Of a stretch of DNA of 64,000 nucleotides, positions 361 to 48,855 are shown piece by piece. The notes beneath the pieces are model-generated. The model was not told the origin of the DNA and did not search any database. It was given only the letters and a program-made list of their open reading frames with translations. The stretch comes from Actinopolyspora mzabensis. GTDB taxonomy: Bacteria; Actinomycetota; Actinomycetes; Mycobacteriales; Pseudonocardiaceae. The first letter of the stretch is position 1; every line of letters starts with the position of its first letter. Both the position numbers and the translations under genes were made by a program. The stretch is from contig NZ_FNFM01000006.1 of NCBI RefSeq assembly GCF_900101095.1, positions 252,101 through 316,100 on the forward strand. Reading direction: 5' to 3'.

Positions 361-549
361 CGTAGCGGGTCGTGTAGCGGAACCTCTCGCACGGCTCTCG
401 CTGTGGGGAGGCCCGACATCGGGTAGTTACTACACAACGTCGGGCCTTCCTCGCGAGAGCCGCACGGGAGAACCCGCCGCCGTGCCGACTGCGAGGGTGG
501 TCGGAGTTCGCCCTGCGTCGAAGCTGCGCGGCGATTTCGCGAGAAATTG
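361..549 (+). repeat. Composite intergenic repeat, copy 1
   Basis: First of six related copies. The core hairpin pairs CGGCTCTCGC (392-401) with GCGAGAGCCG (453-462) and, further in, GGCCCGAC (410-417) with GTCGGGCC (439-446). The apex is a small palindrome GTAGTTACTAC (423-433). After a GC-rich link the copy ends in a short hairpin CGATTTC-GCGA-GAAATTG (532-549). A second hairpin of the same kind lies at 585-604 with one mismatch. No coding potential is seen in the whole 336-832 gap, apart from the furA promoter at its end. The copy is in sense with, and just downstream of, the permease gene. Confidence 0.85.
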
Positions 550-792
550 ATGGCCACCCCAGGCCGGACCGCCGTACCGGGGTGTCAATTTCGCGAGAAA
601 TCGAGGCCGCCCGATCGGGGGGTAGGCCCCCACCACCGGGGAGCCGGGACCAAGGACGAGTGCCCGGCCCCCGAGGAAGCACCGAGACCGTCCCAGTGCC
701 GGAATCAGACACAGCTGGCGCCCGTGAACCGTGGCGGGTGTCGCCCTCGTCACGGTTCTCGCACGATCGGTGGCAGTTCTCCGAGTGTTTTC

Positions 793-823
793 TTGACTTA
801 TTCCAATCTGCGCGTGGCATACT
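793..823 (+). promoter_or_regulatory. Promoter of the Fur-type regulator, leaderless
   Basis: TTGACT (793-798) and CATACT (818-823) make a sigma-A-like -35/-10 pair with a long 19-bp spacer. The A/T-rich TTATTCCAATC between them resembles, from memory, the operator region of mycobacterial furA promoters. The -10 ends nine bases before the ATG at 833 and there is no Shine-Dalgarno sequence, so a leaderless or nearly leaderless transcript is likely (inference). Confidence 0.5.
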
Positions 824-832
824 GATGTCGCT

Positions 833-1285
833 ATGACATCCAGTACGACATCCGGCGGGCAGGCGGCGGACAGTACGCGGGAACGGTTGCGCGCCGCGGG
901 GCTGCGCGCGACGAGCCCGCGAGTGGCCGTGCTCGGTTGGCTGTCCGACAATCCGCATTCCACCGCGGATCAGGTGGCGGGTGCCGTACGGCGGACTCTC
1001 GGCTCCGTCTCCACCCAGGCCGTCTACGACGTGCTGCACGCGTGCACTTCGGCCGGGCTGTTACGCAGGATCGAACCCGCCGGTCACCCGGCCAGGTTCG
1101 AATGCCGTACCGCCGACAACCATCATCATCTGGTGTGTCGGGCATGCGGCCGCGCCGAGGACGTGGACTGCGTCCACGGTTCGGCTCCGTGCCTGGTCCC
1201 CTCGTCGACCGCTGGCTACAGCATCGACGAGGCGGAAATCGTCTTCTGGGGTCTCTGCCCCGACTGCGCGTCCGCGACCGAATAG
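833..1285 (+). CDS. Fur-family regulator (FurA/CatR type) of catalase
   Basis: A 150-residue metal-dependent repressor of the Fur superfamily. Residues 15-80 form the winged helix, with the family phrase SVSTQAVYDVLHACTSAGLLRRI. Residues 85-150 are the dimerisation/metal domain, with HHH near 97-99 and two CxxC pairs (C102/C105 and C142/C145) expected to hold structural zinc. It lies 39 bp upstream of a catalase gene on the same strand. This is the arrangement of actinobacterial furA-katG and catR-catA pairs, in which the regulator is a peroxide or iron sensor controlling itself and the catalase. ATG at 833 is chosen because the N-terminus fits and the promoter lies directly upstream. Which metal or oxidant it senses is not visible. 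Confidence 0.88.
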   Translation: MTSSTTSGGQAADSTRERLRAAGLRATSPRVAVLGWLSDNPHSTADQVAGAVRRTLGSVSTQAVYDVLHACTSAGLLRRIEPAGHPARFECRTADNHHHLVCRACGRAEDVDCVHGSAPCLVPSSTAGYSIDEAEIVFWGLCPDCASATE

Positions 1286-1324
1286 TCGACGGACACCGTA
1301 ATCACCACACAAGGAGGGACGCTC

Positions 1325-2770
1325 GTGAGTTCGCCACGGCCCACGACGACCAACGCCGGTATCCCGGTGGCAAGCGACGACCACTCGCTGACGGCGGGCA
1401 CCAACGGTCCCACGCTGCTGCAGGACCACTACCTGATCGAGAAGAACGCCCAGTTCAACCGCGAGCGGGTGCCCGAGCGCGTGGTGCACGCCAAGGGCGG
1501 CGGCGCGTTCGGTTTCTTCGAGACAACCGAGGACGTCAGCCAGTACACCAAGGCCGCGCTGTTCCAGCCGGGCGTGAAGACCGAGACCCTGATCCGGTTC
1601 TCCTCGGTCGCGGGTGAGCTGGGGTCCCCCGACACCTGGCGTGACCCGCGCGGGACCGCGATCAAGTTCTACACCTCCGAGGGCAACTACGACCTCGTCG
1701 GCAACAACACCCCGGTGTTCTTCATCAGGGACGCCATCAAGTTCCCGGACTTCATCCACTCCCAGAAGCGCCGGGCCGACAACCACCTGCGTGACCACGA
1801 CATGCAGTGGGACTTCTGGAGCCAGTGCCCCGAATCGGCACACCAGGTGACCTGGCTGATGGGTGACCGGGGCATCCCGAAGACCTGGCGGAACATGAAC
1901 CTCTACGGTTCGCACACCTACCTGTGGGAGAACGCCAAGGGCGAGAAGTTCTGGGTCAAGTACCACTTCAAGACCGACCAGGGGCACGACTTCCTCACCC
2001 AGGAGGAGGCCGACCGGCTGGCCGGTGAGGACAGTGACGCCCACATCCGCGACCTGTGGACCAGCATCAAGTCGGGCAACAACCCGAGCTGGACGCTGTA
2101 CGTGCAGGTCATGCCGTACGAGGAGGCCGCGGACTACCGGTTCAACCCGTTCGACCTCACCAAGGTGTGGCCGCACGGCGACTACCCGCTGATCAAGGTC
2201 GGCCGGTTCGTGCTCGATCGCAACCCGGACAACTACTTCGCGCAGATCGAGCAGTCCGCCTTCGAGCCGGCGAACACGGTGCCGGGCATCGGCCTTTCCC
2301 CGGACAAGATGCTGCAGGGCCGGTCGTTCGCCTACCCGGACGCCCACCGGTACCGGATCGGTCCGAACTACATGGAACTGCCGGTCAACCGTCCGGTCTC
2401 GGAGGTGAACTCCTACTCCAAGGACGGCCCGATGCGGTTCAGCTACGGACAGGACCCGGTGTACGCGCCGAACTCCTACGGCGGCCCGCACGCCGACACC
2501 CGCAACGGCAGCGAGGACACCGCCAGCGGGATCGAGCAGGAGGTCGTCCGCTCGGCGTACCAGCTGCACTCGGAGGACGACGACTTCGGCCAGGCCGGCA
2601 CCATGGTCCGCGAGGTCTTCAGCGACGAGGAGCGGCAGCGCTTCGTGAACAACGTGGCGGGGCACCTGTCCAAGGGAGTCAGCCAGCCGATCCTGGAGCG
2701 TGCGCTGCAGTACTGGCGCAACGTGGACAAGGACACCGGCGACAAGATCGCCGAGAAGGTCCAGGGCTGA
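1325..2770 (+). CDS. katA: Monofunctional haem catalase
   Basis: Decomposes hydrogen peroxide to water and oxygen in the cytoplasm. At 481 residues it matches small-subunit (clade 3) catalases. Visible active-site elements are the distal His55 in [12 protein letters not shown], the distal Asn in [10 protein letters not shown] (127/128), and the proximal haem-ligand Tyr337 in [12 protein letters not shown]. The C-terminal helical part follows without a flavodoxin extension. GTG at 1325 is preceded by a perfect AAGGAGGG (1311-1318). The Fur-type regulator directly upstream probably represses it until peroxide or metal stress. A strong hairpin terminator follows at 2852-2891. Confidence 0.95.
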
Positions 2771-2851
2771 GCTCCCCCTCGGTAGTCCGGTGACGCTCGC
2801 CCGTCCGCCGGGCGACGTCCACCCTGACCGCTGACTGCGGCTACCACCACC

Positions 2852-2891
2852 GAACCGGGCCCGGCGACCACCGCGTCGCCGGGCCCGGTTC
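2852..2891 (+). terminator. Hairpin terminator after katA
   Basis: GAACCGGGCCCGGCGA (2852-2867) pairs perfectly with its reverse complement at 2876-2891 around an 8-base loop. There is no clear U-run, as is common in actinobacteria. Confidence 0.7.
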
Positions 2892-2971
2892 TCGTGCGGA
2901 AACCCTTTTCGCGCGAGGATTTCTCGGAAGCGCCCCTGGAGCGGACCGAGTTTGGGGTAGGTTGTCGCTCG

Positions 2972-4285
2972 ATGCGGATTGATCGTACTGTTGTCGAGCG
3001 CGGATCCCCGAGTTTCCCGGCCTCTCCGAAAGATGTGAGAACGAACACAAAACGGGGAAATTCTCGGTTGATTGTCCCGCTCGGGATCATCGCGTTGTCC
3101 GTTATCGCCCTCGGATGGGAATTCTGGGCGTGGATCTCGACCCAGGACCACTGGCCGGATCACGCGGTCTACCGCTGGGCGGTGGAATCCTGGCTCAACG
3201 GCTGGGACGTGATGCCCTCCGAAGCCACCGTGACCAATGAGGACCCCCTGCCCTGGGTGTATCCTCCGTTCGCGCTGTTACCCCTGACCCCGCTGGCCGT
3301 GCTCCCGCTCAAGGCCGACATCGCGCTGCTCTACGTGTTGAACGCGGTGGCCATGGTCACCACCTTCTACCTCGTGTTCCGACGGACCTGGCCCCGCGGC
3401 GCTCCGCTGCTGTGTTTCGCCCTTTCCGTGGCGCTGGCCAGGTTCTCGCTATTTCTCGAACCTGTTTTCGGGTGTTTCGCGCAGGGGCAGATCAATATCC
3501 TGCTCATGGGGGTTGTCGTGGCGGATTGTCTCGTGCGTAATCCGCGTTGGCCGCGGGGAATGCTGGTGGGAATAGCCGCCGCGATCAAACTCGTTCCCGG
3601 TGCTTTTCTGTTGTTCTTTCTGCTGCGCAAGAATTTTCGGGCGGCGGGCACGGTGGTGCTTACCGCGTTCCTGGCGACACTGCTCGGTTTCCTGGTGGAC
3701 TTCGAGGCCTCGGTCAAGTACTGGTTCACACAGGGGCCCGCGGCCGCGGCCTTCGGTTCGCCACTGCGCAGCAACCAGAGTGTACTGGCGGTGCTGAGCC
3801 GGACCGATCTCTCCGGGGCCGCGCAGGTGGTGTTGTGGGTGCTGATCTGTGCGGTGCTGATGGCCGCGACCGTCTACTGCGTCCGGAGGGCGTCCGACGC
3901 GTTGGCCGTGGCGATGATCGGGCTGTTGGCGTTGCTGGTATCGCCCACTTCCTGGTCCAATCACTGGGGCTGGCTCGCACCCGCACTGCTGTTCATGGCG
4001 CTGTACGGGCTGCGCAGCCGTAGCAAGCTCTGGTTGGGCACGGCGGTGGTCTCGATCGCCGTGACCCACTGGGCGCCGTTCGTGGGGTTGCCGCTGAACC
4101 GGCACCTGATGCTGCATCTTCCGCCGGTGGACCAGGTCCGCGCCGCCTCGTTCGTGCTCCTGGGCGTTTCGCTACTCGTGCTGACGGCCTTCTCACTGCT
4201 GCGGTCGTCCCGGGGCACGCCGGAACGCGAACCGAGCGGTCGCTACCTCGCTTCGCTGGTTCGTACCGGAGAACAAGCCGGCTGA
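2972..4285 (+). CDS. GT87-family polyprenol-phosphate-mannose alpha-mannosyltransferase (DUF2029)
   Basis: An integral membrane GT-C glycosyltransferase with about ten hydrophobic segments. Early loops carry acidic and aromatic motifs (WPDHAVYRWAVESWLNG, PLPWVYPPFALL) typical of the GT87/DUF2029 family. That family adds mannose from polyprenyl-phosphate-mannose to phosphatidylinositol mannosides or lipoarabinomannan outside the membrane. The start is uncertain. The frame opens at 2894, but ATG 2972 has GGGGTAGG upstream, and a GTG at 3035 would start closer to the first membrane segment. Any of the three leaves the family domain intact. It is convergent with iniC and may be a single-gene unit. 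Confidence 0.75.
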   Translation: MRIDRTVVERGSPSFPASPKDVRTNTKRGNSRLIVPLGIIALSVIALGWEFWAWISTQDHWPDHAVYRWAVESWLNGWDVMPSEATVTNEDPLPWVYPPFALLPLTPLAVLPLKADIALLYVLNAVAMVTTFYLVFRRTWPRGAPLLCFALSVALARFSLFLEPVFGCFAQGQINILLMGVVVADCLVRNPRWPRGMLVGIAAAIKLVPGAFLLFFLLRKNFRAAGTVVLTAFLATLLGFLVDFEASVKYWFTQGPAAAAFGSPLRSNQSVLAVLSRTDLSGAAQVVLWVLICAVLMAATVYCVRRASDALAVAMIGLLALLVSPTSWSNHWGWLAPALLFMALYGLRSRSKLWLGTAVVSIAVTHWAPFVGLPLNRHLMLHLPPVDQVRAASFVLLGVSLLVLTAFSLLRSSRGTPEREPSGRYLASLVRTGEQAG

Positions 4286-4300
4286 TCCCCGGATCCCGTG

Positions 4301-4321
4301 AGCCCGGCGGGGCGCCGGGCT
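4301..4321. terminator. Shared hairpin between convergent genes
   Basis: AGCCCGGC and GCCGGGCT form a stem with a short G-rich loop between the GT87 gene and iniC. It overlaps the iniC stop codon. It could act on both strands but lacks a U-run. Confidence 0.45.
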
Positions 4322-5804
4322 AATGCCCGAAGTTCGCCGCCAGCAAACGTTCACAACTGCGCAGCACCGTCCGTACCGCCTCCCGGTGGTCCCGGTCGCG
4401 CAGCGGATCGGCGGCCAGCACCCGCCACCGTCGAGCGGCCTCGCCCGCACGCTCGGCGAGATCCCGCGCGCCTGCCCCGGCCGGGGCCGCCAGCCTCGCT
4501 ACCGGCTGGTCACCGTGCGCCCCGAGCAGTCGTTCCGCCTCCTCGCGGAGCCTGCCGGGCAGGGACAACTGACCGGACCACAGGCCGGACAGCACCCGTA
4601 GCTCGTCCCACTCGTACGCGTTGCTCAGCAGGCGATCCAGTTCGCCCTGCAACTGCCTGTCGCCGGAACGGGGGTTGGCGCGCAGTGCCATGTCCACCGC
4701 GAGCAGGGTCGACCGCGCCCGCAGTGCCTCCTGGCGTTCCACGAACTGCAGGTGAACCGCTTCCTGCAGCTCGCCGATCCTGCTCTCGGCGAGCAGCTGC
4801 CGTCGCAGTCTGCCGTGGTCGAGCCCACCCGCCGCGAGCGCGGTCAGCGCACTGTGCAGCCCGAACAGCCCGAAACGGCGCAGCAGTTCCCGCCGGGTGC
4901 CGGGGTCGACGGACTCCGGCGTCTCGGAACCCGCGAACCGGTCGGCGGACAGCAGCAGCTCGTCCAGCTGCTCGCGGGGCAGCGCGGCCAGTCGGGACAG
5001 CGCCTCGAACTCGGACTGCCCGAGGGTGCTGCCGCCCTGCGCCAGCAGCCCGGCCACCGGCAGCACGTACTGCACGAAACTACGGATCTTGGGGTCGTCC
5101 CGGCACGCGTTCGCCACTCTTCCGGCCGCTTCGACGGATTCGTGGTCACCGCCCGCCACCTCGTCCGCCCGCGACAACGCGAGGATCGTGTTGATCGGCG
5201 CGCGCCGCGCCACCCGCAGTTCGTGCACCGATTCGAGGAACTGCAAGTCGATCTGCTGCGGCTGTCTGGTCAGGTAGAGCACCGAGTCCGCCTCGGAAAG
5301 TATCTGTGCCAACGCCGACCTGCCGGTCTCCTTGACCGCGGTGGAGGCCACTCCCGGCGTCTCGATCAGGGTGATCGCCTGCAGTCCGGGGGAGGGGGAC
5401 TCGATGACCAGGCGCGCCACCTCGTCCGGACGCCAGCGTTGCAGGTCCCGGATGGTGGCGGGGTCGAGCTCGTCGACCGGCATGTTCCGCTGCGCTCCGT
5501 GCGGGGTGTGCACCGTGATCCTGGGTTCGGGACCGTAGCGGAACACCGTGTTGACCTGGGTGCGTTCCTCCGGGTCGCTGGGAGCGAGTTCGGCCCCGAC
5601 CAGCGCGTTGATCAGCGTGGACTTGCCGGATTTCACTCGCCCGGTCACCGCCATGCGCAGCGGTTCGGAGAGTCGCTCCAGCCGGGCTCGTAGCCACCCC
5701 GCCGTGCGTGGGTCGTCCCGGTAGAAGGTCATGGTCCGCAGCAGCAGTTCCCTGGCCTGGGAGAGCAGCGCGGTGCTCGGGCCGGTTTCGTGTGACGTGG
5801 TCAT
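4320..5804 (-). CDS. iniC: Dynamin-like GTPase IniC
   Basis: A 494-residue dynamin-superfamily GTPase. The P-loop GRVKSGKS is at 55-62, a switch-I region follows (EERTQVNTVF, 80-88), and the G3-like ETPGVAS is near 145-150. Long helical regions rich in Leu, Arg and Glu make up the rest. No membrane span is apparent, unlike the partner IniA. Its ATG at 5804 overlaps the iniA stop by four bases (ATGA), so the two are translationally coupled. In mycobacteria iniBAC is induced by cell-wall inhibitors such as isoniazid and ethambutol, and IniA/IniC are thought to remodel or repair membranes. Here the same order and strand are kept (iniB-iniA-iniC). Confidence 0.85.
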   Translation of the reverse strand: MTTSHETGPSTALLSQARELLLRTMTFYRDDPRTAGWLRARLERLSEPLRMAVTGRVKSGKSTLINALVGAELAPSDPEERTQVNTVFRYGPEPRITVHTPHGAQRNMPVDELDPATIRDLQRWRPDEVARLVIESPSPGLQAITLIETPGVASTAVKETGRSALAQILSEADSVLYLTRQPQQIDLQFLESVHELRVARRAPINTILALSRADEVAGGDHESVEAAGRVANACRDDPKIRSFVQYVLPVAGLLAQGGSTLGQSEFEALSRLAALPREQLDELLLSADRFAGSETPESVDPGTRRELLRRFGLFGLHSALTALAAGGLDHGRLRRQLLAESRIGELQEAVHLQFVERQEALRARSTLLAVDMALRANPRSGDRQLQGELDRLLSNAYEWDELRVLSGLWSGQLSLPGRLREEAERLLGAHGDQPVARLAAPAGAGARDLAERAGEAARRWRVLAADPLRDRDHREAVRTVLRSCERLLAANFGH

Positions 5805-10620: not shown

Positions 10621-13254
10621 GTGCCGCCGCGCCCACCGAACACCGCTCACCGATTGGGACCGCTCGTGAATCACCCCAGCGCCACACGGCCCGCGCCGGA
10701 CACCGGTTCAGCAGCCCGGTTACGGGAGGTCGCACCGCACCGCGAGGCCACGCGCCTGCGGCAGGAGATAGCCGCCAACCCGAACAAACCCCTCACCGCG
10801 GTGGTGCGCGCTCCCGGCGGCTACGGTAAGACGAGCCTGCTGAACCTGCTCGCCCACACCTACCGCGAAGCGGGTACCGCGGTGCGCGAGTCCGCCGAGT
10901 TCGACCCGGCGGAAATCCGTTCCGGCGCCGCCGCGCTGCTGCTCGACGACGCCCACCTGCTGTCCGCCGCCACGCTGCGGGAAGTGGAGGCCCTGGCCGC
11001 CGCGGGGCCGGTACGCGTGATCCTGGCCTGCCGCCCCTGGCCCTTCCCGGAGGAACTGGCGCGGCTCTGCGCACGCTTCGCCACTGGCAGGCCGCTCGTG
11101 GAGCTGTCCGAGCTCGGCGTCCCCGAGATCTCCGAAGCGCTCCGCGGGGTCTCCACGGCCCCGGGCGACACCGAGACGGCACAGCGGCTGCGGATGTTCA
11201 CCGGCGGCGTCCCGGCCCTGGTGGGGCGCGCGATGGAAACGCTGGAACCGCGCGAACTCGCCGCTGGTGGTACCGAGCGCCTGCCCCGGACCGCCCTGGA
11301 CAGATTCGACCACGAACTGTCCGCGCTGGATCGAACCGCGCGTGGCTGCCTCACCGCGCTCGCAATCGGCGCCGAACCACATCCCGCGCTGCTGGCCACC
11401 GTGCTCGACGCGGAATCCCCCGAGATCACCACCGCCTTGGCGGCACTGCGTTCCGCGGGTCTGCTGGACGACACCGACACACCCCCGCCCATGGTCGCCC
11501 GTGCCGTGCTGGCGCTGACCGACTGGCAACAACGACTGGCGGTGCTGCGCGTGCTGCTGCGGGTCCGGCTGGACCGCGGCGGGCCGGTGCTGCCGTTACT
11601 GCGGCCGCTGCTGGGAACCGAGTCCGTGCTGCCGTGCGATGACACGCTGGCAGCCGCCTTCGACGCGGCGGGCGGCCAGGCGCTGAGCCGGTCCTCGGAA
11701 GTGGGCGAGTCCCCGGAAGTGGCGGTGCGGATGTTCGACGCGGCCGTGAGCACCGGTCTGCCCGCGTCCTCGGTCACCGCCCGCAAGGCGTGGGCGGTCG
11801 CGCTGGCCGGACGATTCGACGAGGCGCTGCGCCTCGCAGACCGGGTGATAGCCGACGAGACCGCTTCCGACCGGGCGACCGCGATCCAGGTGGCGGCGGC
11901 GGTACTGACACACCGCGGGCTGCCCGAACGAGCCGCGGAGCTGTGCCGCTGGTCCGCCCGCCACGTCCGCTGGCCGGGGGACAGTTCCTGCGCCGTGCTC
12001 GGACTCCTCTGCACGGGCAGACTCGACGAAGCCGTCGAACTGCTGCGTACCGGGGTCGAGGAACCACCCACCTCGGTGGCCGGGGCGAGCACCCAGCTCG
12101 CCTCCGGCCTGCACGAGTCGGTCGACGGCGCGGCTTCGGAAGCACTGAACACACTGGTGCGAGCCGCCTCGCTCGCCGAACCCGTCGGGGCGTCCCTGCT
12201 CACCCCGGACACCCCGGCAGCCGTCGCGGCCACGGTCGCGCTGCACGGCGGGGAACCCGATCTCGCCGACTCGGTGCTGCGGCGGGCCGTCACGGCCGAC
12301 AGCGGCGGGCCGCTGTTCCGCACCAGGCATCGCTTGCTCGCCATCTGGTTGCCGCTGTTGCGGGGCGACACCACGGTGGCCAAGCGTGAGCTCGCGGCAC
12401 TGCTGTCCGAGGTGGAGGAACTCAGCCCGCGTGATCGGCTGCACGCGGTGGCGATCGAGGCGGGTATCGCGAGCCGCGACAACGACATGGCGGCGTTGGG
12501 GGAGGCACGCACCAGGGCACGCCGGGCGACGGCCGAACACCCGGTGGACCTGTTCGCACTGCTTCCGCTGGGCGAACTCGCCGTGGCCACCGCGCGGTTG
12601 CGGGACGGCGACTGGCTGCTGCCGCAGCTGCGCCAGGCACACGAGCTGCTGGCGGCGCTCGGCGAACCCCCACTGTGGGCGGCTCCGCTGCGCTGGCGCG
12701 AGATGCAGGCCGCCATCGTGGTCGAGGAGTACGACCGGGCGGCCGAACACGCCGCCGTTCTCGACCGGATGGCGCGGCACAACCAGCTCGCCGCCGCGCT
12801 GGCAGCGGCGGGAGGGGTGTGGCTGCGCGTGCTCGAGAACGAGGTGGACCCGACCGAGGTGGAAGGCGCGGCACGGACGTTGCACGCGGTGGGACTCGCC
12901 TGGGACGGCGCCGGACTGGCCGGACAGGCGGCGATCCGCACCACCGACCGGAACGCGATGCCCGCCCTGCTGGAATGCGCGCGTGGGCTGAGCGGCAAGG
13001 GGAACCGTTCGCAGCGGCAGTCGAGCGGAACCGGTGGGGACCTCGGCGCGGCGGCCGATGAGACGCAACTGCTCAGCGACAGGGAACGAGAAGTGGCCGA
13101 ACTGGTGCTCGGCGGGATGACCTACAAGCAGGTCGGCCAGCGGCTGTTCATCTCGGCGAAAACGGTGGAACACCACATCGGCCGGATCAAGCAGCGGCTG
13201 GACTGCGCCGACAGGCAGCAACTCCTGGAGAAGCTCCGCTCCTTGCTGAGGTGA
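10621..13254 (+). CDS. Large ATPase-LuxR regulator, resembling the iniBAC activator IniR
   Basis: An 877-residue STAND/MalT-like transcription factor. Walker A APGGYGKTS is at 64-72 and Walker B ALLLDDAHLL is near 105-114. A long helical repeat region follows (about 300-780). A C-terminal LuxR helix-turn-helix has the family phrases LSDREREVAELVLGG and YKQVGQRLFISAKTVEHHI (815-877). Mycobacterial iniBAC is activated by a protein of this architecture encoded close by, so this is its likely counterpart; that is inferred from architecture and position. GTG 10621 has AGGGCGA upstream, but GTG 10666 is also possible. It probably switches on iniBAC in response to an envelope signal bound by the ATPase or repeat region. 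Confidence 0.75.
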   Translation: MPPRPPNTAHRLGPLVNHPSATRPAPDTGSAARLREVAPHREATRLRQEIAANPNKPLTAVVRAPGGYGKTSLLNLLAHTYREAGTAVRESAEFDPAEIRSGAAALLLDDAHLLSAATLREVEALAAAGPVRVILACRPWPFPEELARLCARFATGRPLVELSELGVPEISEALRGVSTAPGDTETAQRLRMFTGGVPALVGRAMETLEPRELAAGGTERLPRTALDRFDHELSALDRTARGCLTALAIGAEPHPALLATVLDAESPEITTALAALRSAGLLDDTDTPPPMVARAVLALTDWQQRLAVLRVLLRVRLDRGGPVLPLLRPLLGTESVLPCDDTLAAAFDAAGGQALSRSSEVGESPEVAVRMFDAAVSTGLPASSVTARKAWAVALAGRFDEALRLADRVIADETASDRATAIQVAAAVLTHRGLPERAAELCRWSARHVRWPGDSSCAVLGLLCTGRLDEAVELLRTGVEEPPTSVAGASTQLASGLHESVDGAASEALNTLVRAASLAEPVGASLLTPDTPAAVAATVALHGGEPDLADSVLRRAVTADSGGPLFRTRHRLLAIWLPLLRGDTTVAKRELAALLSEVEELSPRDRLHAVAIEAGIASRDNDMAALGEARTRARRATAEHPVDLFALLPLGELAVATARLRDGDWLLPQLRQAHELLAALGEPPLWAAPLRWREMQAAIVVEEYDRAAEHAAVLDRMARHNQLAAALAAAGGVWLRVLENEVDPTEVEGAARTLHAVGLAWDGAGLAGQAAIRTTDRNAMPALLECARGLSGKGNRSQRQSSGTGGDLGAAADETQLLSDREREVAELVLGGMTYKQVGQRLFISAKTVEHHIGRIKQRLDCADRQQLLEKLRSLLR

Positions 13255-13269
13255 TTGGTCTCCCGGGTG

Positions 13270-13395
13270 GCGTAGTCGGTCGCTTGGCGGAACCTCGCGC
13301 ACGGCTCTCGCTCCGGGAGGCCCGACATCGGGTAGTTACTACACAACGTCGGGCCTTCCTCGCGAGAGCCGCACGGGAGAACCCGCGGCGGTGCC
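13270..13395 (+). repeat. Composite intergenic repeat, copy 2
   Basis: Starts 16 bp after the LuxR-gene stop, in sense. It is nearly identical to copy 1 through the core hairpin (GGCCCGAC / GTCGGGCC, apex GTAGTTACTAC) and the trailing GAGAACCCGCGGCGGTGCCG. It lacks the following GATTTC hairpin. Together with copy 3 on the opposite strand it fills the gap between two convergent genes. The 222 bp between the two copies show no gene. Confidence 0.85.
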
Positions 13396-13617
13396 GGTGG
13401 GCGGGCGTGGTGGCGAGCGGCTCCCGCCGCTCGCACGTGCTTTTCGTTCTTCGGCCCGGTGGGATTCATCCCTCACGGCACCACGAGCGACCTGCGCGCG
13501 GGATCCCGGTGCGCCGCACACTGTCCCGCAACCGACGATCCCGGCCGGACCGAGAGCCCCGGCTGCGCCAACAAGCGGCGCGAGCCGCTTGCGGCCACGC
13601 ACGCAGCCCGACCAACA

Positions 13618-13738
13618 GCGGGTTCTCTCGTGGTGCTCTCGCGAGGACGCCGGAGACGTGGCGTAGTACCTACTCGATGTCTCCGGACCCGCAGCGAGAG
13701 TCCGCGAGAGGTTCCGCCAAGCGACTAGCTACGCTGCC
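13618..13738 (-). repeat. Composite intergenic repeat, copy 3, diverged with compensatory changes
   Basis: Inverted relative to copy 2 and ending 10 bp from the stop of the esterase gene, in sense with it. The flank GCTTGGCGGAACCTC matches copy 2. The inner stem differs in sequence yet pairs fully: CCGGAGAC (13650-13657) with GTCTCCGG (13679-13686), instead of GGCCCGAC with GTCGGGCC. The apex remains a small palindrome. Confidence 0.8.
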
Positions 13739-13747
13739 CTCGGGCAT

Positions 13748-14830
13748 CTACCTTCCAGAGTGGAGGGAGAGGCCGGCTCGCAGCTCTCCTACGATCTCGA
13801 ACATCGCCTCCCGCAGCCGGGCGCTGGCTCCGAACAGGTTCGCGAAACCGTGGATGAGGTCGGGGAACCTACGGGCGATGACCGGCACACCGGCCTCGGA
13901 CAGCCGCCTGCCGTACTCCTCGCCCTCGTCCCGCAGCGGATCGAAGCCCGCCGTGATCAGCACCGTGGGTGCCAGCCCGGTGAGATCCTCGTTGCGCAGC
14001 ACCGAGAGCCGCTGGTCGCTCCGCGCGGAGACTTCGGGCTGGTACATGTCCATGAACCAGTCCATGTCCCCGTCGGTGAGCAGGAAGCCGTTCCCGAACA
14101 GCTCGCGGGAGCGGCGCCGGGTGCTCGCGTCCGTGGCCGGATACAGCAGCAGTTGCAGCACGGGGCTCTTGAGTCCGTTCGCGGTGGCGTGCTGCGAGAC
14201 CACGGCCGCGAGATTGCCTCCCGCGCTGTCCCCGCCCACCGCGATCGAGTCGGCGCTGGAACCGAGGTCCTCGGCGTTATCCAGCACGTACTGGTACGCG
14301 TCGATCGCGTCCTCGGCCGCCGCGGGGAAGGGGTGCTCGGGCGCCAGTCGGTAGTCCACCGAGAGCACCCTGATGTCGGCGTGCTTGGCGAGGAACCGGC
14401 ACAGCTCGTCGTGGGTGTCGAGATCGCCAACCACCCAACCGCCGCCGTGGTAGAAGACGAGCAACGTGCTCGGCTCGGTGCGGCCCTCCGGGCGGTACAG
14501 CCTGGCGGGCAGTTCTCCCGAGCCCGCGGACACGGTGCGTTTGCTCACCTGCACCCCGGTAACCCCCGCGCCGCGTACGACCTCGATGCCCTGCGCCATC
14601 CCCGCGCGGGCCTTCTCCGGGGTGTCGGCGGCCATGCGCTCCTGGCCGGCCAGGGCCTGCAGCCGCAGCAGTGCTTGTACCTCCAGCGCCAGCTCCTGGC
14701 CGTCGACCCGCGTGGGCGGCCCGGCGATCCGCCGCAGCAGCGGGCGCGGCAGTCGGAGCAGGCTCAGCAGCACGGCTGACTGGGCACGGCGTTGTGCCGA
14801 GGCGGGGATGGCTTCGAGAACCTTGGACAC
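13748..14830 (-). CDS. HSL-type alpha/beta-hydrolase (esterase/lipase)
   Basis: A 360-residue carboxylesterase of the hormone-sensitive-lipase (bacterial family IV) group. The oxyanion-hole motif HGGG is at 128-131. The nucleophile elbow GDSAGG (200-205) has Ser202. The acid is in the FDPLRDEG region near 308 and the base His is in LIHGFANL near 338. A helical cap of about 90 residues precedes the core. No signal peptide is evident, so it is probably cytoplasmic or membrane-associated. GTG 14830 is chosen because GGAAAGG lies nine bases upstream. It is related to actinobacterial LipI/LipH-type esterases; the natural ester substrate cannot be told. Confidence 0.85.
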   Translation of the reverse strand: MSKVLEAIPASAQRRAQSAVLLSLLRLPRPLLRRIAGPPTRVDGQELALEVQALLRLQALAGQERMAADTPEKARAGMAQGIEVVRGAGVTGVQVSKRTVSAGSGELPARLYRPEGRTEPSTLLVFYHGGGWVVGDLDTHDELCRFLAKHADIRVLSVDYRLAPEHPFPAAAEDAIDAYQYVLDNAEDLGSSADSIAVGGDSAGGNLAAVVSQHATANGLKSPVLQLLLYPATDASTRRRSRELFGNGFLLTDGDMDWFMDMYQPEVSARSDQRLSVLRNEDLTGLAPTVLITAGFDPLRDEGEEYGRRLSEAGVPVIARRFPDLIHGFANLFGASARLREAMFEIVGELRAGLSLHSGR

Positions 14831-24622: not shown

Positions 24623-26605
<1,983 letters not shown>

Positions 26606-26639: not shown

Positions 26640-26869
26640 TGCTGGTGGCGGAACCTCTGGCACGGCTCTCGTTGCGGGGAGGCCCGACATGGGGTGGGTA
26701 CTACACCACGTCGGGCCTTCCTCGCGAGAGTCGCACCGGAGAACCCGCGGCGGTGCCGCCTGCGAGGGCGGCTGGAGTTCGGCCTGGGTGAGTGGTTGGA
26801 GCTTGCGCCGCGGAAGTGGTGGGAGTTCGGCCCCACGTCGTAGCGGCCCGGCGATTTCGCGAGAAATCG
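26640..26869 (+). repeat. Composite intergenic repeat, copy 4, with downstream short hairpin
   Basis: In sense 34 bp after acs. GGCCCGAC and GTCGGGCC form the inner stem, with a slightly altered apex (GTGGGTACTAC). About 90 bp on is the perfect short hairpin CGATTTC-GCGA-GAAATCG (26852-26869). A further degenerate copy, CGATTGC-GTTG-GAAATCG, lies at 26904-26921. The remaining part of the 26606-27264 gap is gene-free. Confidence 0.85.
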
Positions 26870-28531: not shown

Positions 28532-28549
28532 CGATTTCTCGCGAAATCG
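28532..28549. repeat. Short CGATTTC hairpin after nhaA
   Basis: CGATTTC-TCGC-GAAATCG, a perfect 7-bp stem with a four-base loop (GCGA on the minus strand). It is a solitary copy of the hairpin that trails the composite repeats. The rest of the 28489-28796 gap shows no gene. Confidence 0.75.
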
Positions 28550-28796
28550 CCGCGCCCCGGAGACCGCCGTCGGGAAGTGACCGTGCGGGTCGCAGCGTGC
28601 GTGTCTCCGGTGCGTGAGTCGGATGCATCGCAAGGCCGGGCCGCTCGCCGCGTAGGTCGCTACTCAAGAGTGGCCCAACACAGCAAGGCGCCGACTCACG
28701 TGACGGCTACGCAACCGCCCGGGCAAAGTACCGCTGTGGATCCGGCAGGGGCGCGTCACTGCGTGGGTGTTGGTCGCTCGTGGCACGATAACGAGC

Positions 28797-38803: not shown

Positions 38804-38821
38804 CGATTTCGTGGGAAATCG
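38804..38821. repeat. Short CGATTTC hairpin, variant loop
   Basis: CGATTTC-GTGG-GAAATCG, upstream of the Nudix gene. The stem matches the other copies while the loop differs. Confidence 0.65.
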
Positions 38822-42182: not shown

Positions 42183-42280
42183 TCTTTCCGGGACTCGCCA
42201 AACGGCCCCGCTGCGTTACGGATCCGGGCGTTCCCATCCTCGCGGACGGGAACGGCCCCGGGAAATCACTCGATCCGTCG

Positions 42281-43628: not shown

Positions 43629-44761
43629 ACACACCCCCGGGCCCGGAACGGCTCGACATCGACCGGTTGCTCGAGGACCCCGACAATCGCGTCCTCGTCT
43701 GCTGCGGTTCCGGCGGAGTCGGCAAGACGACCACCGCGGCCGCCCTGGGCATCCGGGCGGCCGCCCGCGGCCGCAAGACCGTGGTGCTGACCATCGACCC
43801 CGCCCGCAGACTGGCGCAGGCGCTCGGGCTGGCCGAACTGGACAACACTCCCCGGAAGGTCGATCTCGAGCAGGGCGAGTCCGGTGAGCTGCACGCCATG
43901 ATGCTCGACATGCGCAGGACGTTCGACGACATGGTCCTGGCGCACGCCGGTCGTGACCGGGCACGCCAGATCCTGGACAACCCCTTCTACCAAACCGTGT
44001 CGAGCTCGTTCTCCGGGACGCAGGAGTACATGGCGATGGAGAAGCTCGGGCAGCTGGCCGCCGAGGACACCTGGGACCTGATCGTGGTGGACACCCCACC
44101 GAGTCGCTCCGCGCTGGACTTCCTCGACGCCCCCCAGCGACTGTCCACCATCCTGGACGGCAGGCTCATCCGGATGCTGGCCAGCCCCGCCAAGGCGGGC
44201 GGTAAGGGGCTCCGCAGAATCGTCGGAGCCGGGTTCGGGATGTTCGCCAAGGCGGTCGCCACGATCGTCGGACGCCAGCTGCTCGCCGACGCCGCCGCCT
44301 TCGTGCAGGCGTTCGATTCCACGTTCGGTGGCTTCCGGGAGCGGGCGGACCGGACCTACCGGCTGTTGCGCTCCAGCGGCACCCGGTTCCTGGTGGTGGC
44401 ATCCCCGGAAGCGGACGCGCTGCGGGAGGCCTCCTACTTCGTGGAACGGCTGTCCACGGAGCACATGCCGCTGGCGGGCATGGTCGCCAACCGCACGCAT
44501 CCGATACTGGCCGATCTGGCGGCCGCGCGTGCGTTGTCGGCCGCCGAGGAACTGGAAACAGCCGGGTCCGCCCCGCTGGCAGCCTCGGTTCTCCGGTTGC
44601 ACGCCGACCGGGTGGCGGTCGCGGAGCGGGAGAAACGTCTGCTGGCCCGGTTCACCAGGGCGCATCCGGAAGTCGAGCTCGGCAGCGTTCCCGCGCTGGC
44701 GGACGAGGTGCACGACCAGTACGGCCTGCGCGAGATCGGCCGCCGACTCGCCCGGGAGTGA
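43625..44761 (+). CDS. bagB: Get3/ArsA-like ATPase B (Rv3680-like)
   Basis: A 378-residue partner of BagA. The P-loop [14 protein letters not shown] (27-40) lacks the signature Lys of the A subunit. [15 protein letters not shown] near 157-171 is switch-II, followed by a helical, membrane-tail-binding-like region ([20 protein letters not shown] and on to [11 protein letters not shown]). ATG 43625 overlaps the bagA stop and has CGGAGGAAG upstream. The two probably act as a heteromer, as shown for the mycobacterial pair. An inverted composite repeat lies between this gene and whiB4. Confidence 0.88.
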
Positions 44762-44785
44762 GCCCGCCCCGCCCTGCAACGGCCT

Positions 44786-44975
44786 CGATTTCTCGCGAAA
44801 TCGGGGGCCCCGACCGCAGGCCGAGCTCCGACCATCCTCGCCACCGGCACCGCCGCGGGGTCTCGCGTGCGGCTCTCGCGAGGAAGGCCCGACGTTGGGT
44901 AGTTCGCTACCCGATGTCGGGCCTCCCCGGAGCGAGGGCAGTGCGAGAGGTTCCGCCACGCAACAAGCTACGCAA
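44786..44975 (-). repeat. Composite intergenic repeat, copy 5
   Basis: Runs on the minus strand, beginning 27 bp after the whiB4 stop and in sense with it. The inner stem GGCCCGAC (44887-44894)/GTCGGGCC is kept. The apex forms a six-pair stem GGGTAG-TTCG-CTACCC on the plus strand, where other copies have GTAGTTACTAC. The trailing short hairpin is at 44786-44803 (CGATTTC-TCGC-GAAATCG on the plus strand), 25 bp past the bagB stop. Confidence 0.85.
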
Positions 44976-45001
44976 CCCGTGTGGCCGACGGCTCTCCGCT
45001 C

Positions 45002-45304
45002 TCACCCCAGTTGGTAGGCGTCGATGTCCTGGGTGTAATCCTCCCGCGCGGCTTCCAGCAGCTCACGCCAGTTGCGCACATCAGGGCGTCTGCGCAGCAG
45101 CGCCCGTCGTTCCCGCTCGGTCATGCCGCCCCAGACACCGAACTCGATCCGCTTGTCCAGCGCCTCCGCGAGGCACTCGGTGCGGACCGGACATCCGAAG
45201 CAGATGGTGCGTGCCTTGCGCTGCTCCGCACCTCGTACGAAAAGCTGGTCGGGGTTCTTGTCGCGGCATGCCGCGTTCACCCGCCAGTCCCCCTGTTCCA
45301 ACAT
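45002..45304 (-). CDS. whiB4: WhiB4-type iron-sulphur redox regulator
   Basis: A 100-residue Wbl protein. Cys13, Cys35, Cys38 and Cys44 (NAACRD; TICFGCPVRTEC) ligate a [4Fe-4S] cluster, and GVWGGMTERERRALLRR is the turn and basic helix. WhiB4 in M. tuberculosis is an oxygen/redox-sensitive DNA-binding regulator, and the gene lies between the ATPase pair and ponA2 there as here. ATG 45304 is chosen; the frame is open another 29 codons upstream. It is divergent from ponA2 over about 240 bp. Confidence 0.92.
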   Translation of the reverse strand: MLEQGDWRVNAACRDKNPDQLFVRGAEQRKARTICFGCPVRTECLAEALDKRIEFGVWGGMTERERRALLRRRPDVRNWRELLEAAREDYTQDIDAYQLG

Positions 45305-45547
45305 CAAAGCCCCCAGCTCCTCACTGGATTGTCGGCGACCATGCAACCTCCGGTCCCCCGGCACCGGCCGTCGTGGCGTGCCCGCGGGCACGCCACGAAA
45401 CCTGTCGCTAGACGTGGACGCACACTAGAAGATCTCGGTTCCGTAGCCAACCGACTTTCGTGGGAATTTTCTTTCACGCTCATCACATCGGGGGTTATTG
45501 ACCGTGACAGCGAGTCGCGTAGCGCGGCTCGACTTACCGTTTACCTC

Positions 45548-48004
45548 GTGCGGCTACGTAACGGCGTGCTCAAGCTGTTCGGTCTTTGTGTGCTGGCCGG
45601 CGTCCTGATCGCCGGCATGATGTTCCCCGCTGCGGGAGCGCTCGGAGTGATATCGAATCGTGCCGGCGACGCGGTGAACCGGATCTCCACCGAACTGCTC
45701 ACCGAACAACCACCCCTGGTCTCGACGGTGACGGATCGAAATGGCGATCCGATCGCGTACCTGTACGAGCAGTACCGGACACCGGCCACCTCCGACCAGA
45801 TCGCCGACACGATGAAGGCGGCGATGGTGGCCATCGAGGACCAGCGGTATTACGAACACGAAGGTGTGGACTGGCCGGGCACGGTGCGTGCTTTCGTCAG
45901 CAACCAGGTGGCAGGCAGGATCACCCAGGGCGCTTCCACGATCACCCAGCAGTATGTCAAGAACTACCTGGTGCATGTCACCGCCGCGGGAGATCCCGTC
46001 AAACAGGCCGAGGCAACCGAGCAGACCGTGGCGCGCAAACTGCGTGAGATCCGGGTAGCCCTCCAGCTGGAGAAGCGGTTGAGCAAGGAAGAGATACTCA
46101 CCCGCTATCTCAACGTCGTGCCCTACGGCAACCGCGTCTACGGCATCGCCGCCGCCTCCCACGCCTACTTCGGAACCACCCCTGGCGAACTCACGATCGC
46201 GCAGGCCGCGTTGTTGGCCGGTGTGGTCAACCGCCCGGGCTCGTTGAACCCGGTCACCCAGCCCAAGGAGGCGATGTTCCGGCGCGGGCTGGTTATCGAC
46301 GCGATGGCCCGGCAGGGCAGGATCACCCAGCAGGCCGCTCGGGAGGCCAAGGAGTCCCCGCTGGGGATCGAACAACCACTCGCCAAACTGCCCAACGGCT
46401 GCGTCGGTGCCGGCGCGCAGAACGGCTTCTTCTGCAAGTACGTGGAAAACTACCTGCAACGCGCGGGGTTCTCCATGGACCAGCTGCGCCGTGGCGGCTA
46501 CACGATCCGGACCACGTTGGACCAGGGAATCACGGCCGCGGCAAAGGAATCGGCCGAGCAGGGCGTGCCCAAGGACAGCGACCAGATCGCCAACGTCATG
46601 TCCGTGGTGGAGCCCGGCGAGGACAAACATCAGGTCCGCGCGCTGGTGGCCAACCGCGACTTCGGTTTCGACAAGGAGCAGGGTGAGAGCGCGTACGCGC
46701 TGCCCAGCTCCATGGCACCACCCGGCGCGGGTTCGGTGTACAAGACCTTCACCGCCGCGGCCGCGCTGGAAGCGGGGATGGGGATCCAGGACGTCGTCCC
46801 GGCACCGGGCTCCTACACCTCGGTCAAGTTCAGCAACGGGAGCAACCCCTACACCGTCGGTAACGCCGAGGGAGTCGGCGCCGGTTCCCGCTCGATCCAG
46901 AGTGCGCTGGCGACCTCGCCGAACACGGCGTTCGTCATCCTGGAGGAGCGTGCCGGACTGGACAACACCGTGGAGATGGCCTCCCGGCTGGGGATGCGCC
47001 GGACGCTCAACCACCACGATCTGGCGGGCGTGCCGATGGTCGCCGACCGCGCTCGGGAACGTACCCAGGCCGAAGAGATCAAACAGCGCAAGATCGGCGC
47101 GTTCACCCTGGGATTCAGCCCCACCAGCCCCCTGGAACTGGCCAACGCCTCCGCGACGATCACCAGCGGTGGTGTCTGGTGTCCACCGACGCCCGTCAAG
47201 AGCATCCGCGACCGCCACGGCAACCGGGTCTCGATCACCGAGAAACCCTGTGAACAGGCCGTGGACCGGGAGCTGGCGGACGCGATGGCCGTCGGAATGT
47301 CCGACGACACCATTTCCGGTACCGCCGCGCGTGCGGCCAGCGCCGCGGGGTGGAGCCGTCCCACCGCGGCCAAGACCGGTACCACCGAAACCTTCGGCTC
47401 CGCCGCCTTCATCGGTGCCACCCCGCAGCTGGCGGGTGCCGTACTCACCTACATCGACCGCCCCGAGTCCCCCGGCATGGGGATTTGTCTGGGGAGCCCT
47501 CCCACGGTCTGCGGCAGCGGCAACATCTACGGTGGCACCGTTCCCGCCAAGACCTGGATGCGTGCCATGAAGACCGCGCACGAGGGACTGCCCGTGGCGG
47601 AGTTGCCGTCGACCACCGACCGCTACCGCCACGGCGGTTCCGGGAAGCAGGTTCCCGAAGTCGTGGACATGTCCGCCGACGAGGCCGCGAAGAAACTGCG
47701 CGAGGCGGGTTACGAGGTGGAACGGCGCACCGTCAGCAGCAGCGAGTCCGAGGGGACGGTGATCAGCCAGTCGCCGCGCGGTATCGCCCAGAGCGGCACC
47801 TCGGTGCTGCTCTCGGTCAGCAGCGGCTACATTCCGCCACCCCGCACCGTCGCCGCGCAACCGCCTTCCCAGGGGGAGAACTCCGGTGGAAGCGGGGGAA
47901 CCGGCGGAGGTGAGCGCGGCGGCAACGGTTCCGGCGGTGGTTCCGGCGGCGGCGGTGGTGGTGAGCAGCCCTCGCCGCAGCAGCAGGAGGACTCCGGTGG
48001 CTGA
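45548..48004 (+). CDS. ponA2: Bifunctional class A penicillin-binding protein PonA2
   Basis: An 818-residue membrane enzyme that polymerises and cross-links peptidoglycan. One N-terminal span (8-35) precedes the GT51 transglycosylase domain, with Glu97 in AIEDQRYYEHEGVDW, GASTITQQYVKN (128-139) and RKLREIRVALQLEKRLSKEE. The transpeptidase has SVYK (Ser396-Lys399), SPN and KTGTTE. A cysteine-bearing insertion (NGCVGAG ... FFCKYV) is typical of mycobacterial PonA2. A PASTA domain (about 705-770) and a Gly/Ser-rich tail end it. GTG 45548 begins just before the span; the frame is open far upstream but unlike the family. Matches Rv3682 in order. Confidence 0.93.
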   Translation: MRLRNGVLKLFGLCVLAGVLIAGMMFPAAGALGVISNRAGDAVNRISTELLTEQPPLVSTVTDRNGDPIAYLYEQYRTPATSDQIADTMKAAMVAIEDQRYYEHEGVDWPGTVRAFVSNQVAGRITQGASTITQQYVKNYLVHVTAAGDPVKQAEATEQTVARKLREIRVALQLEKRLSKEEILTRYLNVVPYGNRVYGIAAASHAYFGTTPGELTIAQAALLAGVVNRPGSLNPVTQPKEAMFRRGLVIDAMARQGRITQQAAREAKESPLGIEQPLAKLPNGCVGAGAQNGFFCKYVENYLQRAGFSMDQLRRGGYTIRTTLDQGITAAAKESAEQGVPKDSDQIANVMSVVEPGEDKHQVRALVANRDFGFDKEQGESAYALPSSMAPPGAGSVYKTFTAAAALEAGMGIQDVVPAPGSYTSVKFSNGSNPYTVGNAEGVGAGSRSIQSALATSPNTAFVILEERAGLDNTVEMASRLGMRRTLNHHDLAGVPMVADRARERTQAEEIKQRKIGAFTLGFSPTSPLELANASATITSGGVWCPPTPVKSIRDRHGNRVSITEKPCEQAVDRELADAMAVGMSDDTISGTAARAASAAGWSRPTAAKTGTTETFGSAAFIGATPQLAGAVLTYIDRPESPGMGICLGSPPTVCGSGNIYGGTVPAKTWMRAMKTAHEGLPVAELPSTTDRYRHGGSGKQVPEVVDMSADEAAKKLREAGYEVERRTVSSSESEGTVISQSPRGIAQSGTSVLLSVSSGYIPPPRTVAAQPPSQGENSGGSGGTGGGERGGNGSGGGSGGGGGGEQPSPQQQEDSGG

Positions 48005-48080
48005 GCGGAGTTCTCCGCTCCGGCCCCGGTTCTGCGCTCGGGCCCGGTGCTGCGGTAGAGCCCTGGTTCTCCGGTAGGGC

Positions 48081-48123
48081 TCCGGAGGACACTCGGGTGG
48101 TTCCGCCACCCGAGTGCTCCGGA
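48081..48123. terminator. Bidirectional terminator between ponA2 and yqeY
   Basis: CACTCGGGTGG (48090-48100) pairs with CCACCCGAGTG (48106-48116). After a two-base bulge TCCGGAG pairs with CTCCGGA outside it. It lies between convergent genes. Confidence 0.75.
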
Positions 48124-48154
48124 GAGGGCGGGCGGAAAACTTCGGTGGCGGGGG

Positions 48155-48625
48155 TCAGCCGTTGAGCTCCGCTTTCACCGCGGCCGCGACCCTGCCCCCT
48201 TCGGCCTGGCCCGCGGCCTTGGCGTTCGCGATCTTCATGACCTGACCCATCTGCTTCGGACCCGGCGTCTCGCCGATCTCGGCCGCGACCTCGCTCACCG
48301 CCTCCTTCGCCAACCGGGTGAGTTCCTCGTCGTCGAGCTGCGCGGGCAGGTACTCCCGGAGGATGTCGCCCTCGGCGCGCTCAGCCGCCGCCTGTTCGGC
48401 ACGCCCCGCCGACTCGAAGGCCGCGGCGGATTCGTCCCGCTTCTTGACCTCCTTGGAAAGAACCCCCCGAACCTCCTCGTCGGAGAGCTCGCGTGCCTGT
48501 TGCCCGGAAACCTCCTCGGTTCCGATCGCGGACAGCGCCATCCGGAGCACCCCGGTGCGGGTGGTTTCCCGTTCCTTCATCGCCGCGGTCATGTCGGCCC
48601 GCAGGCGTTCCTTCAACTCGGACAT
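48155..48625 (-). CDS. GatB/YqeY-domain protein
   Basis: A 156-residue helical protein. MSELKERLRADMTAAMKER and the C-terminal GPKQMGQVMKIANAKAAGQAEGGRV are landmarks of the YqeY family, related to the tail domain of the amidotransferase subunit GatB. It may act in tRNA-dependent amidation or tRNA recognition; the role is unproven. ATG 48625 gives the family start. A composite repeat copy lies directly upstream. Confidence 0.88.
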   Translation of the reverse strand: MSELKERLRADMTAAMKERETTRTGVLRMALSAIGTEEVSGQQARELSDEEVRGVLSKEVKKRDESAAAFESAGRAEQAAAERAEGDILREYLPAQLDDEELTRLAKEAVSEVAAEIGETPGPKQMGQVMKIANAKAAGQAEGGRVAAAVKAELNG

Positions 48626-48669
48626 GGCCCAATTATCCCGGAGAGATGGAGTGCGGGGCCGCTCGGTTT

Positions 48670-48855
48670 TCGTAGTTGGTGCAGTGGCGGAACCTCTCAC
48701 ACGGCTCTCGCCCCGGGGAGGTTCGACATCGGGTAGTTACTACACAACGTCGGGCCTTCCTCGCGAGAGCCGCACGCGAGAACCCGCGGTCGGTACCGCT
48801 GCGAGGGTGGTGGGAGCCCGGCCTTCGTCGGCGACAGCGGCGCGGCGATTTCGCG
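48670..48855 (+). repeat. Composite intergenic repeat, copy 6, with truncated short hairpin
   Basis: Lies in the divergent gap between yqeY and the metallophosphoesterase, so it is the one copy not behind a stop codon. The outer stem and apex are intact; the first arm of the inner stem is GGTTCGAC against GTCGGGCC, which costs one pair and adds one G-T pair. The trailing hairpin keeps only its first half (CGATTTCGCG, 48846-48855), after which the sequence changes. Confidence 0.8.

What the first reader, a model, noticed from the sequence alone, without database searches (positions are those of the whole stretch)
361..48855. Six-copy structured intergenic repeat family
Copies at 361-549, 13270-13395, 13618-13738 (minus), 26640-26869, 44786-44975 (minus) and 48670-48855 share the flank GGCGGAACCTC, an outer stem CGGCTCTCGC/GCGAGAGCCG, an inner stem GGCCCGAC/GTCGGGCC, a palindromic apex near GTAGTTACTAC and a tail GAGAACCCGCGG. 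They contain no frame and no transposase. One copy per about 10 kb implies hundreds in a genome if the density holds (extrapolation). I know no named family with these motifs. It may be a non-autonomous mobile repeat, a terminator family or a structured RNA.
Basis: seen in the sequence. Interest (0 to 1): 0.85.

Follow-up and report, generated by a model that had tools for sequence, protein, structure and literature searches.

The report
Dispersed folding repeats behind bacterial genes
The six look-alike stretches belong to a family of roughly a hundred or more copies per genome in one group of soil and salt-loving bacteria; most copies sit almost exactly at the end of a gene and fold into a conserved hairpin, most clearly on the strand opposite to that gene, and what they do is not yet known.

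Summary
Confirmed and extended. The six copies are real. The genome (an Actinopolyspora) holds 89 by a strict pattern (reversed-pattern control 0), about 120 by extrapolation. A covariance model finds the family in 84 of 390 genomes of the same GTDB family (15 of 46 genera) and in none of 395 others from the phylum. Rfam, phage, plasmid and viral-contig searches gave nothing. New here: (1) Position: 49 of 67 strong copies begin 30-49 nt behind a stop codon, same strand (null mean 1.8, highest 8 in 2000 draws); 9 of 67 lie 50-65 nt from an opposite-strand start codon. (2) Strand: the conserved fold belongs to the strand antisense to the preceding gene. It is the more stable strand in 73 of 77 diverse copies, covaries more, and shows RNA-like G-U over A-C excess (75:17; 35:13) that the sense strand lacks (16:23; 8:17); SRP RNA control 17:0. 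(3) Dynamics: between sister species, copies at one site are exchanged or eroded; cores resemble paralogues more than orthologues (12 of 13 pairs). No transposase, integron integrase or reverse transcriptase tested tracks with the family. Nearest kind: ERIC/NEMIS/REP-type repeats. Function is inferred, not shown.

The parts
345..501 (+). Copy 1: leader 345-376, hairpin core 377-477, tail to about 501; preceding gene ends at 335 (41 nt before the core). The better-folding strand is -.
   Evidence: R1 119.4 bits; gene distance; fold -65.1 (+) and -73.5 (-) kcal/mol as RNA
13255..13410 (+). Copy 2: leader, core 13287-13386, tail; 32 nt behind the stop of gene 10801-13254 (LuxR-type C-terminal domain)
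   Evidence: R1 119.6 bits
13594..13749 (-). Copy 3: tail, core 13618-13717, leader to the stop of gene 14773-13748 (alpha/beta hydrolase), 30 nt away; faces copy 2 between convergent genes
   Evidence: R1 105.9 bits
26616..26772 (+). Copy 4: leader, core 26648-26748, tail; 42 nt behind the stop of gene 24623-26605 (AMP-binding, acetyl-CoA synthetase N-terminal domain)
   Evidence: R1 111.6 bits
44831..44988 (-). Copy 5: tail, core 44855-44956, leader; 45 nt behind the stop of gene 45304-45002 (WhiB)
   Evidence: R1 102.5 bits; site also occupied in A. righensis, A. alba and G072
48655..48811 (+). Copy 6: leader, core 48687-48787, tail; the exception in the window: 61 nt from the start codon of the opposite-strand gene 48625-48155 (YqeY-like)
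   Evidence: R1 105.0 bits
28607..28706 (-). Weak trace of a further copy; related species carry copies at about this place
   Evidence: R1 24.6 bits, E 0.057; L049:17985-18084, L061:10777-10878
44786..44803 (.). Palindrome CGATTTCTCGCGAAATCG beyond the tail of copy 5; same motif at 532-549, 26852-26869 (behind copies 1 and 4) and alone at 586-603, 28532-28549, 38804-38821

Best explanation
A family of non-autonomous interspersed repeats, about 160 bp (leader about 32, hairpin core about 100, tail about 24), confined to one actinobacterial family. SHOWN: many copies, structure conserved by double changes across genera, the conserved fold belonging to the strand antisense to the preceding gene, leader ends abutting a coding edge (mostly a stop codon, sometimes a start), exchange and erosion of copies at fixed sites. 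INFERRED: the family spread as a mobile repeat in the past and is now kept alike by gene conversion between copies; the folded strand acts as RNA. Because in 58 of 67 strong copies the folded strand points into a coding sequence at a fixed short distance, the likeliest effect is at gene edges: a hairpin in a transcript that runs from the spacer towards the gene (antisense into a gene end, or read-through towards a start) that stops, stalls or marks it for processing. The mobilising enzyme and the RNA have not been seen.
For: 89 strict copies, control 0; 84 of 390 family genomes, 1 of 396 phylum genomes, the one being this genome. Covariation, 77 diverse copies: antisense 369 both-side changes against 120.6 shuffled, score 0.429 against 0.119; sense 263 against 63.8, 0.341 against 0.094. 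Consensus fold -47.4 kcal/mol with 30 pairs antisense, -30.8 with 24 pairs sense. Antisense more stable in 42 of 43, 73 of 77, 82 of 88, 90 of 92 copies; SRP control 11 of 28. G-U:A-C in columns where Watson-Crick pairs dominate: antisense 75:17 and 35:13, sense 16:23 and 8:17, SRP right strand 17:0, wrong strand 0:9. Position: 49 of 67 at 30-49 nt behind a stop, null mean 1.8, highest 8; placed at random within the same gaps 3.1, highest 9; 9 of 67 at 50-65 nt from a start, null 1.7, highest 8; other genera 46 of 70 sense copies at 30-49 nt. Exchange.
Against: No transcript data. The folded strand is antisense to both neighbours in 40 of 87 copies, so it would need its own promoter; none was found in the one 600 bp region scanned. 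Losses are common among sister species and G117 of the same genus keeps very few copies (1 strict), so no copy need be essential. No clean new insertion was seen among the close species. With DNA parameters the two strands of the two copies tried fold about equally. Position counts include orthologous copies and use my own simple gene caller.
Confidence: 0.45

Rival explanations
1. Purely selfish DNA: the antisense (bottom) strand folds as single-stranded DNA and is the substrate of a recombinase or transposase that inserts it next to coding edges, in the manner of REP or attC hairpins; no host function.
For: Patchy presence (15 of 46 genera); within-genome likeness greater than orthologue likeness; conserved mismatches and bulges; attC sites too lie just behind stop codons and use the bottom strand (recalled, not tested here).
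Against: Y1 transposase (PF01797) absent from copy-rich G038, G328, G013; integron integrase TIGR02249 above cut-off in 0 of 18 genomes; reverse transcriptase PF00078 absent from G000, G038, G072, G097, G134, G013; no copies found in phages, plasmids or viral contigs; G-U excess is what RNA would give.
Confidence: 0.3
2. A 3'-UTR element of the preceding gene read in the sense strand: mRNA stabiliser, processing site or unusual terminator.
For: 70 of 87 copies are sense to the gene before them; stable stem-loops in bacteria are generally enriched within 50 bp behind stop codons (PMC1590033, passage); in Saccharopolyspora copies a GC hairpin follows the tail.
Against: The sense strand is the less stable one and lacks the G-U excess; no T run; 17 of 87 copies are not behind a sense gene.
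Confidence: 0.13
3. Covariation is made by a DNA process (template switching at a quasi-palindrome, gene conversion between subtypes) and not by selection on a fold.
For: One A. alba copy (L060:3194-3296) has become a near-perfect palindrome, 89.8 and 82.5 bits on the two strands; hybrid arms of two subtypes occur.
Against: Such correction would remove the mismatches, yet they are kept across genera and are strand-asymmetric.
Confidence: 0.08

Closest known systems
ERIC/IRU repeats of enterobacteria
   Same: About 127 bp, intergenic, many copies, long hairpin, orientation-dependent effect on the mRNA of the upstream gene in Yersinia (PMC2229807, passages)
   Different: Other bacteria and other sequence; TIR, TSD and TA ends not found here; fixed 30-49 nt distance behind stop codons; better fold on the antisense strand
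REP/BIME and RAYT-linked REPINs
   Same: Palindromic intergenic repeats, often in facing pairs, over 100 copies (PMC2817692, abstract start in listing); the apex holds GTAG..CTAC
   Different: REPs are 20-40 bp with an unpaired GTAG or CGTC tag at one end (PMC3733652, abstract and passages); here the core is about 100 bp, GTAG is inside the apical stem and only in some genera, and no RAYT link
NEMIS/Correia and RUP elements
   Same: About 107-155 bp non-coding repeats that fold (PMC2229807, passages)
   Different: No TIR, TSD or TA ends shown here; not inserted in genes in 87 plus 85 copies
Integron attC sites
   Same: Hairpin behind a stop codon, bottom strand folds (recalled)
   Different: No cassette arrays, no integron integrase above cut-off; GTT on both arms of the folded strand instead of GTT and AAC (attC boxes recalled)

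Membership tests
Any Rfam 15 family | Covariance-model score at or above gathering | tested here: not met
   Only a tRNA in the window; region 13240-13790 at E up to 10 gives five miRNA-type matches far below gathering, best 29 against 268 bits
REP / RAYT | RAYT (Y1) transposase in the genomes that carry the repeat | tested here: not met
   PF01797 absent from G038, G328, G013; present in 8 of 18 genomes, copy-free ones among them
REP / RAYT | 20-40 bp palindrome tagged by unpaired GTAG or CGTC | tested here: not met
   Core about 100 bp; GTAG paired in the apex
MITE (ERIC, RUP, NEMIS type) | Target-site duplication at filled against empty sites | tested here: inconclusive
   No clean empty site among aligned polymorphic sites; they keep leader, half a core, tail or another repeat
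MITE (ERIC, RUP, NEMIS type) | Terminal inverted repeats | tested here: inconclusive
   Pairing of leader with own tail is hardly above shuffled tails: 4.40 against 4.26, sd 0.08, highest 4.45
Integron attC | Integron integrase in the genome | tested here: not met
   TIGR02249 above cut-off in 0 of 18 genomes; weak tyrosine-recombinase matches in all 18
Retro-inserted element | Resident reverse transcriptase | tested here: not met
   PF00078 in 5 of 18 genomes, absent from six copy-rich ones including this one
Intrinsic terminator | Hairpin followed by a T run | tested here: not met
   Tail begins GGCGGTGC; the one hit in 13200-13800 is another hairpin, 13413-13434; only this region scanned
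Structured RNA | Covariation with G-U preferred over A-C on one strand | tested here: met
   Antisense strand, with SRP RNA as control
Structured RNA | A transcript | not testable with these tools
   No RNA data held

The most novel reading that the evidence does not exclude
A dispersed class of bacterial RNA hairpins that guard coding edges: about a hundred per genome, each placed so that the folded strand faces a coding sequence at a fixed distance, stopping or marking transcripts that enter genes from the spacer, and shared out between sites by recombination. It could bear on reports of antisense RNA at gene ends in Saccharopolyspora erythraea (PMC3610266, passage; whether that strain carries the repeat was not tested).
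Probability: 0.18. Interest if true: 0.85.

Novelty: new variant of a known kind. Interest (0 to 1): 0.62.

Why it matters
Industrial actinomycetes (Saccharopolyspora, Amycolatopsis) carry copies, so the repeats could affect transcript ends and antisense RNA in producers of antibiotics and insecticides. The sharp placement behind stop codons makes a long-standing question testable: do such repeats pick gene edges, or do gene edges keep them? The strand test (G-U against A-C with a known RNA as control) shows a cheap way to tell which strand of a repeat folds.

Tried and rejected
Rejected: chance or a window-only feature; known Rfam family; carriage on phages, plasmids or viral contigs, searched with two blastn queries and one exact pattern; RAYT, integron integrase and reverse transcriptase as common mobilisers. 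Led nowhere: an outer leader/tail stem; clean empty sites among close species; papers. Changed on the way: a first G-U/A-C count on sense-fitted alignments (16:19 and 22:34) and the SRP control made me think of DNA-level structure; folding both strands and fresh alignments showed that the asymmetry points to the antisense strand.

Selections made: alignment A2 used 44 of 45 extracted copies (truncated L016 left out); A3 and A6 used 77 of 120 candidate copies chosen by hand for diversity, a few with large indels left out. One search used 87 places, one per place, out of 153 rows (the weaker opposite-strand rows dropped). The position test used the 67 of 87 above 75 bits. One of 30 SRP loci (L288) gave no sequence; 28 distinct rows remained.
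Full report
OBSERVATION. They are not identical: subtypes differ in stem sequence, in part with matching changes on both arms. A strict gapped pattern finds 89 places in the 5.0 Mb genome and none when the pattern is reversed. The contig with the window is denser than average; scaling the strict count by strict against model copies on that contig (14 against 19) gives about 120 per genome, not several hundred.

ORGANISM AND SPREAD. NCBI puts righensis in Actinopolysporaceae and Saccharopolyspora in Pseudonocardiaceae; the GTDB-based tool puts all carriers in one family. With model R1, 16 of 298 genomes of the order have matches; with the broader model R2, 84 of 390 genomes of the family (15 of 46 genera) and, in an even draw from the phylum, 1 of 396, this genome itself. 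Large scans use stricter filters and score few candidates per genome. No match in phages, plasmids (two queries each) or viral contigs (one exact pattern).

ANATOMY. In sense orientation: a leader conserved for about 32 nt, core GCGG-AAC-CTC ... GAG-AAC-CCGC of about 100 nt, tail GGCGGTGC.RG.TGCG. Stems vary with double changes; TCCTCGC, GGAACC and GAACCC hardly vary. In Saccharopolyspora copies a GC hairpin follows the tail; in Actinopolyspora further short repeats follow, among them the palindrome CGATTTCGCGAGAAATCG.

WHICH STRAND FOLDS. As RNA, the strand antisense to the preceding gene is more stable in 42 of 43, 73 of 77, 82 of 88 and 90 of 92 copies of four overlapping sets, by 8-12 kcal/mol on average; for SRP RNA of the same bacterial family the antisense strand is more stable in 11 of 28. 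The consensus of the same 77 copies is -47.4 kcal/mol with 30 pairs antisense and -30.8 with 24 pairs sense. In freshly made alignments, columns where Watson-Crick pairs dominate hold G-U:A-C 75:17 and 35:13 antisense, 16:23 and 8:17 sense; SRP RNA gives 17:0 on its true strand and 0:9 on the other. On CM-fitted sense alignments the count was 16:19 and 22:34. Covariation exceeds all 500 shuffles on both strands and is stronger antisense (0.429 against 0.341), though the two structures were chosen differently. With DNA parameters the two strands of the two copies tried are about equal. One G-T pair (GGG/TCC) is constant on the sense strand and so counts against a wholly antisense reading.

POSITION. 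Of 87 copies in 1.34 Mb from four Actinopolyspora genomes, 70 have a gene ending before them on the same strand, 17 do not; none lies inside a predicted gene. Of the 67 above 75 bits, 49 begin 30-49 nt behind the stop codon; random placement gives 1.8 (highest 8 of 2000) and random placement inside the same gaps 3.1 (highest 9). Nine more lie 50-65 nt from an opposite-strand start codon (null 1.7, highest 8). In this genome's contig alone 15 of 19 strong copies are in the 30-49 window. Orthologous copies are counted more than once in the 67. In 85 exact copies of named genomes, 70 follow a sense gene, 46 of these at 30-49 nt, none inside a gene. A Saccharopolyspora subfamily with a fixed extension GCGATTTCARTGAGGTTTTTCC lies at larger, variable distances. 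So in 58 of 67 the folded strand runs towards a coding sequence a fixed short way ahead.

DYNAMICS. Sister species share most sites. At shared sites the flanking gene is about 96% identical between A. alba and A. righensis but the core 90%, and the core is closer to another copy of its own genome than to its orthologue in 12 of 13 (G000-G134), 4 of 6 (G134-G097) and 5 of 7 (G000-G097) pairs; one of the 13 has a rearranged flank. Leaders are either nearly identical or clearly replaced, and with the replaced leader the stop codon can change between TGA and TAG. Where a close relative lacks a copy, the aligned sites keep a leader, half a core, a tail or another repeat; none was a clean empty site. 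Against the distant G072 some sites are empty, for instance 117584, where the others have a spacer of about ten bases. One A. alba copy has become a near-perfect palindrome.

MOBILISER. Y1 transposase, integron integrase (above cut-off) and reverse transcriptase are each missing from copy-rich genomes. None of the three can be the common mobiliser now; others were not searched.

MECHANISM. I favour a repeat that once spread as a mobile element and is now exchanged by gene conversion, whose antisense strand acts as an RNA hairpin at coding edges. Shown: copies, fold, strand, position, exchange. Inferred: transcription, effect, past mobility. The selfish DNA-hairpin reading is the main rival, because patchiness, losses and likeness within genomes fit it, and because no transcript was seen.

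KNOWN KINDS. I saw passages of PMC2229807 (ERIC, NEMIS, RUP), PMC3733652 (tagged REPs), PMC1590033 (stem-loops enriched behind stop codons in bacteria generally) and PMC3610266 (antisense RNA enriched at gene 3' ends in S. erythraea); other papers only as listings. Seven searches of an open-access library turned up no description of this family in the listings I saw; subscription papers are not held there. The enrichment behind stop codons is thus a known general tendency; the narrow distance, the strand and the breadth of conservation are what is unusual here.

Noticed in passing
G000:C13, eight places, e.g. L139-L153 region 280713-280802 of the contig (window about 28613-28702): A second repeat family, CACGTGAGTCGGCGCCT ... 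TTGAGTAGCGACCTACGC ... GCGATGCATCCGACTCACG, 7-8 copies per motif in 376 kb; it shares the apex GAGTAGNNNCTACGC with the first family and sometimes sits where sister species have a first-family copy.
   Followed up: partly
window 532-549, 586-603, 26852-26869, 28532-28549, 38804-38821, 44786-44803: Palindrome CGATTTCGCGAGAAATCG, alone or behind the repeats; 53 hits of a 25-base version with up to 5 mismatches in 376 kb, both strands counted.
   Followed up: no
L060:3194-3296: A. alba copy orthologous to copy 1 whose inner arms have become a near-perfect palindrome, as if corrected from its own other arm.
   Followed up: partly
Stop codons before replaced leaders, e.g. window 333-335 and orthologues: TGA and TAG alternate between sister species together with the leader, which needs two changes in the codon.
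   Followed up: no
window 13413-13434: Terminator-like hairpin with TTTT between the facing copies 2 and 3.
   Followed up: no
L034/L071 (G117) and L005 (G000): One site keeps its copy in G117, which has almost no others, and in this genome at the same gene; possibly an old, conserved site.
   Followed up: partly
L166, L177, L184, L197, L198, L203, L214, L217, L220, L236, L240: Saccharopolyspora subfamily with a fixed 5' extension TTCARTGAGGTTTTTCCAACCTCG, found away from stop codons.
   Followed up: no
window 50007-50081: tRNA-Pro (CGG).
   Followed up: no
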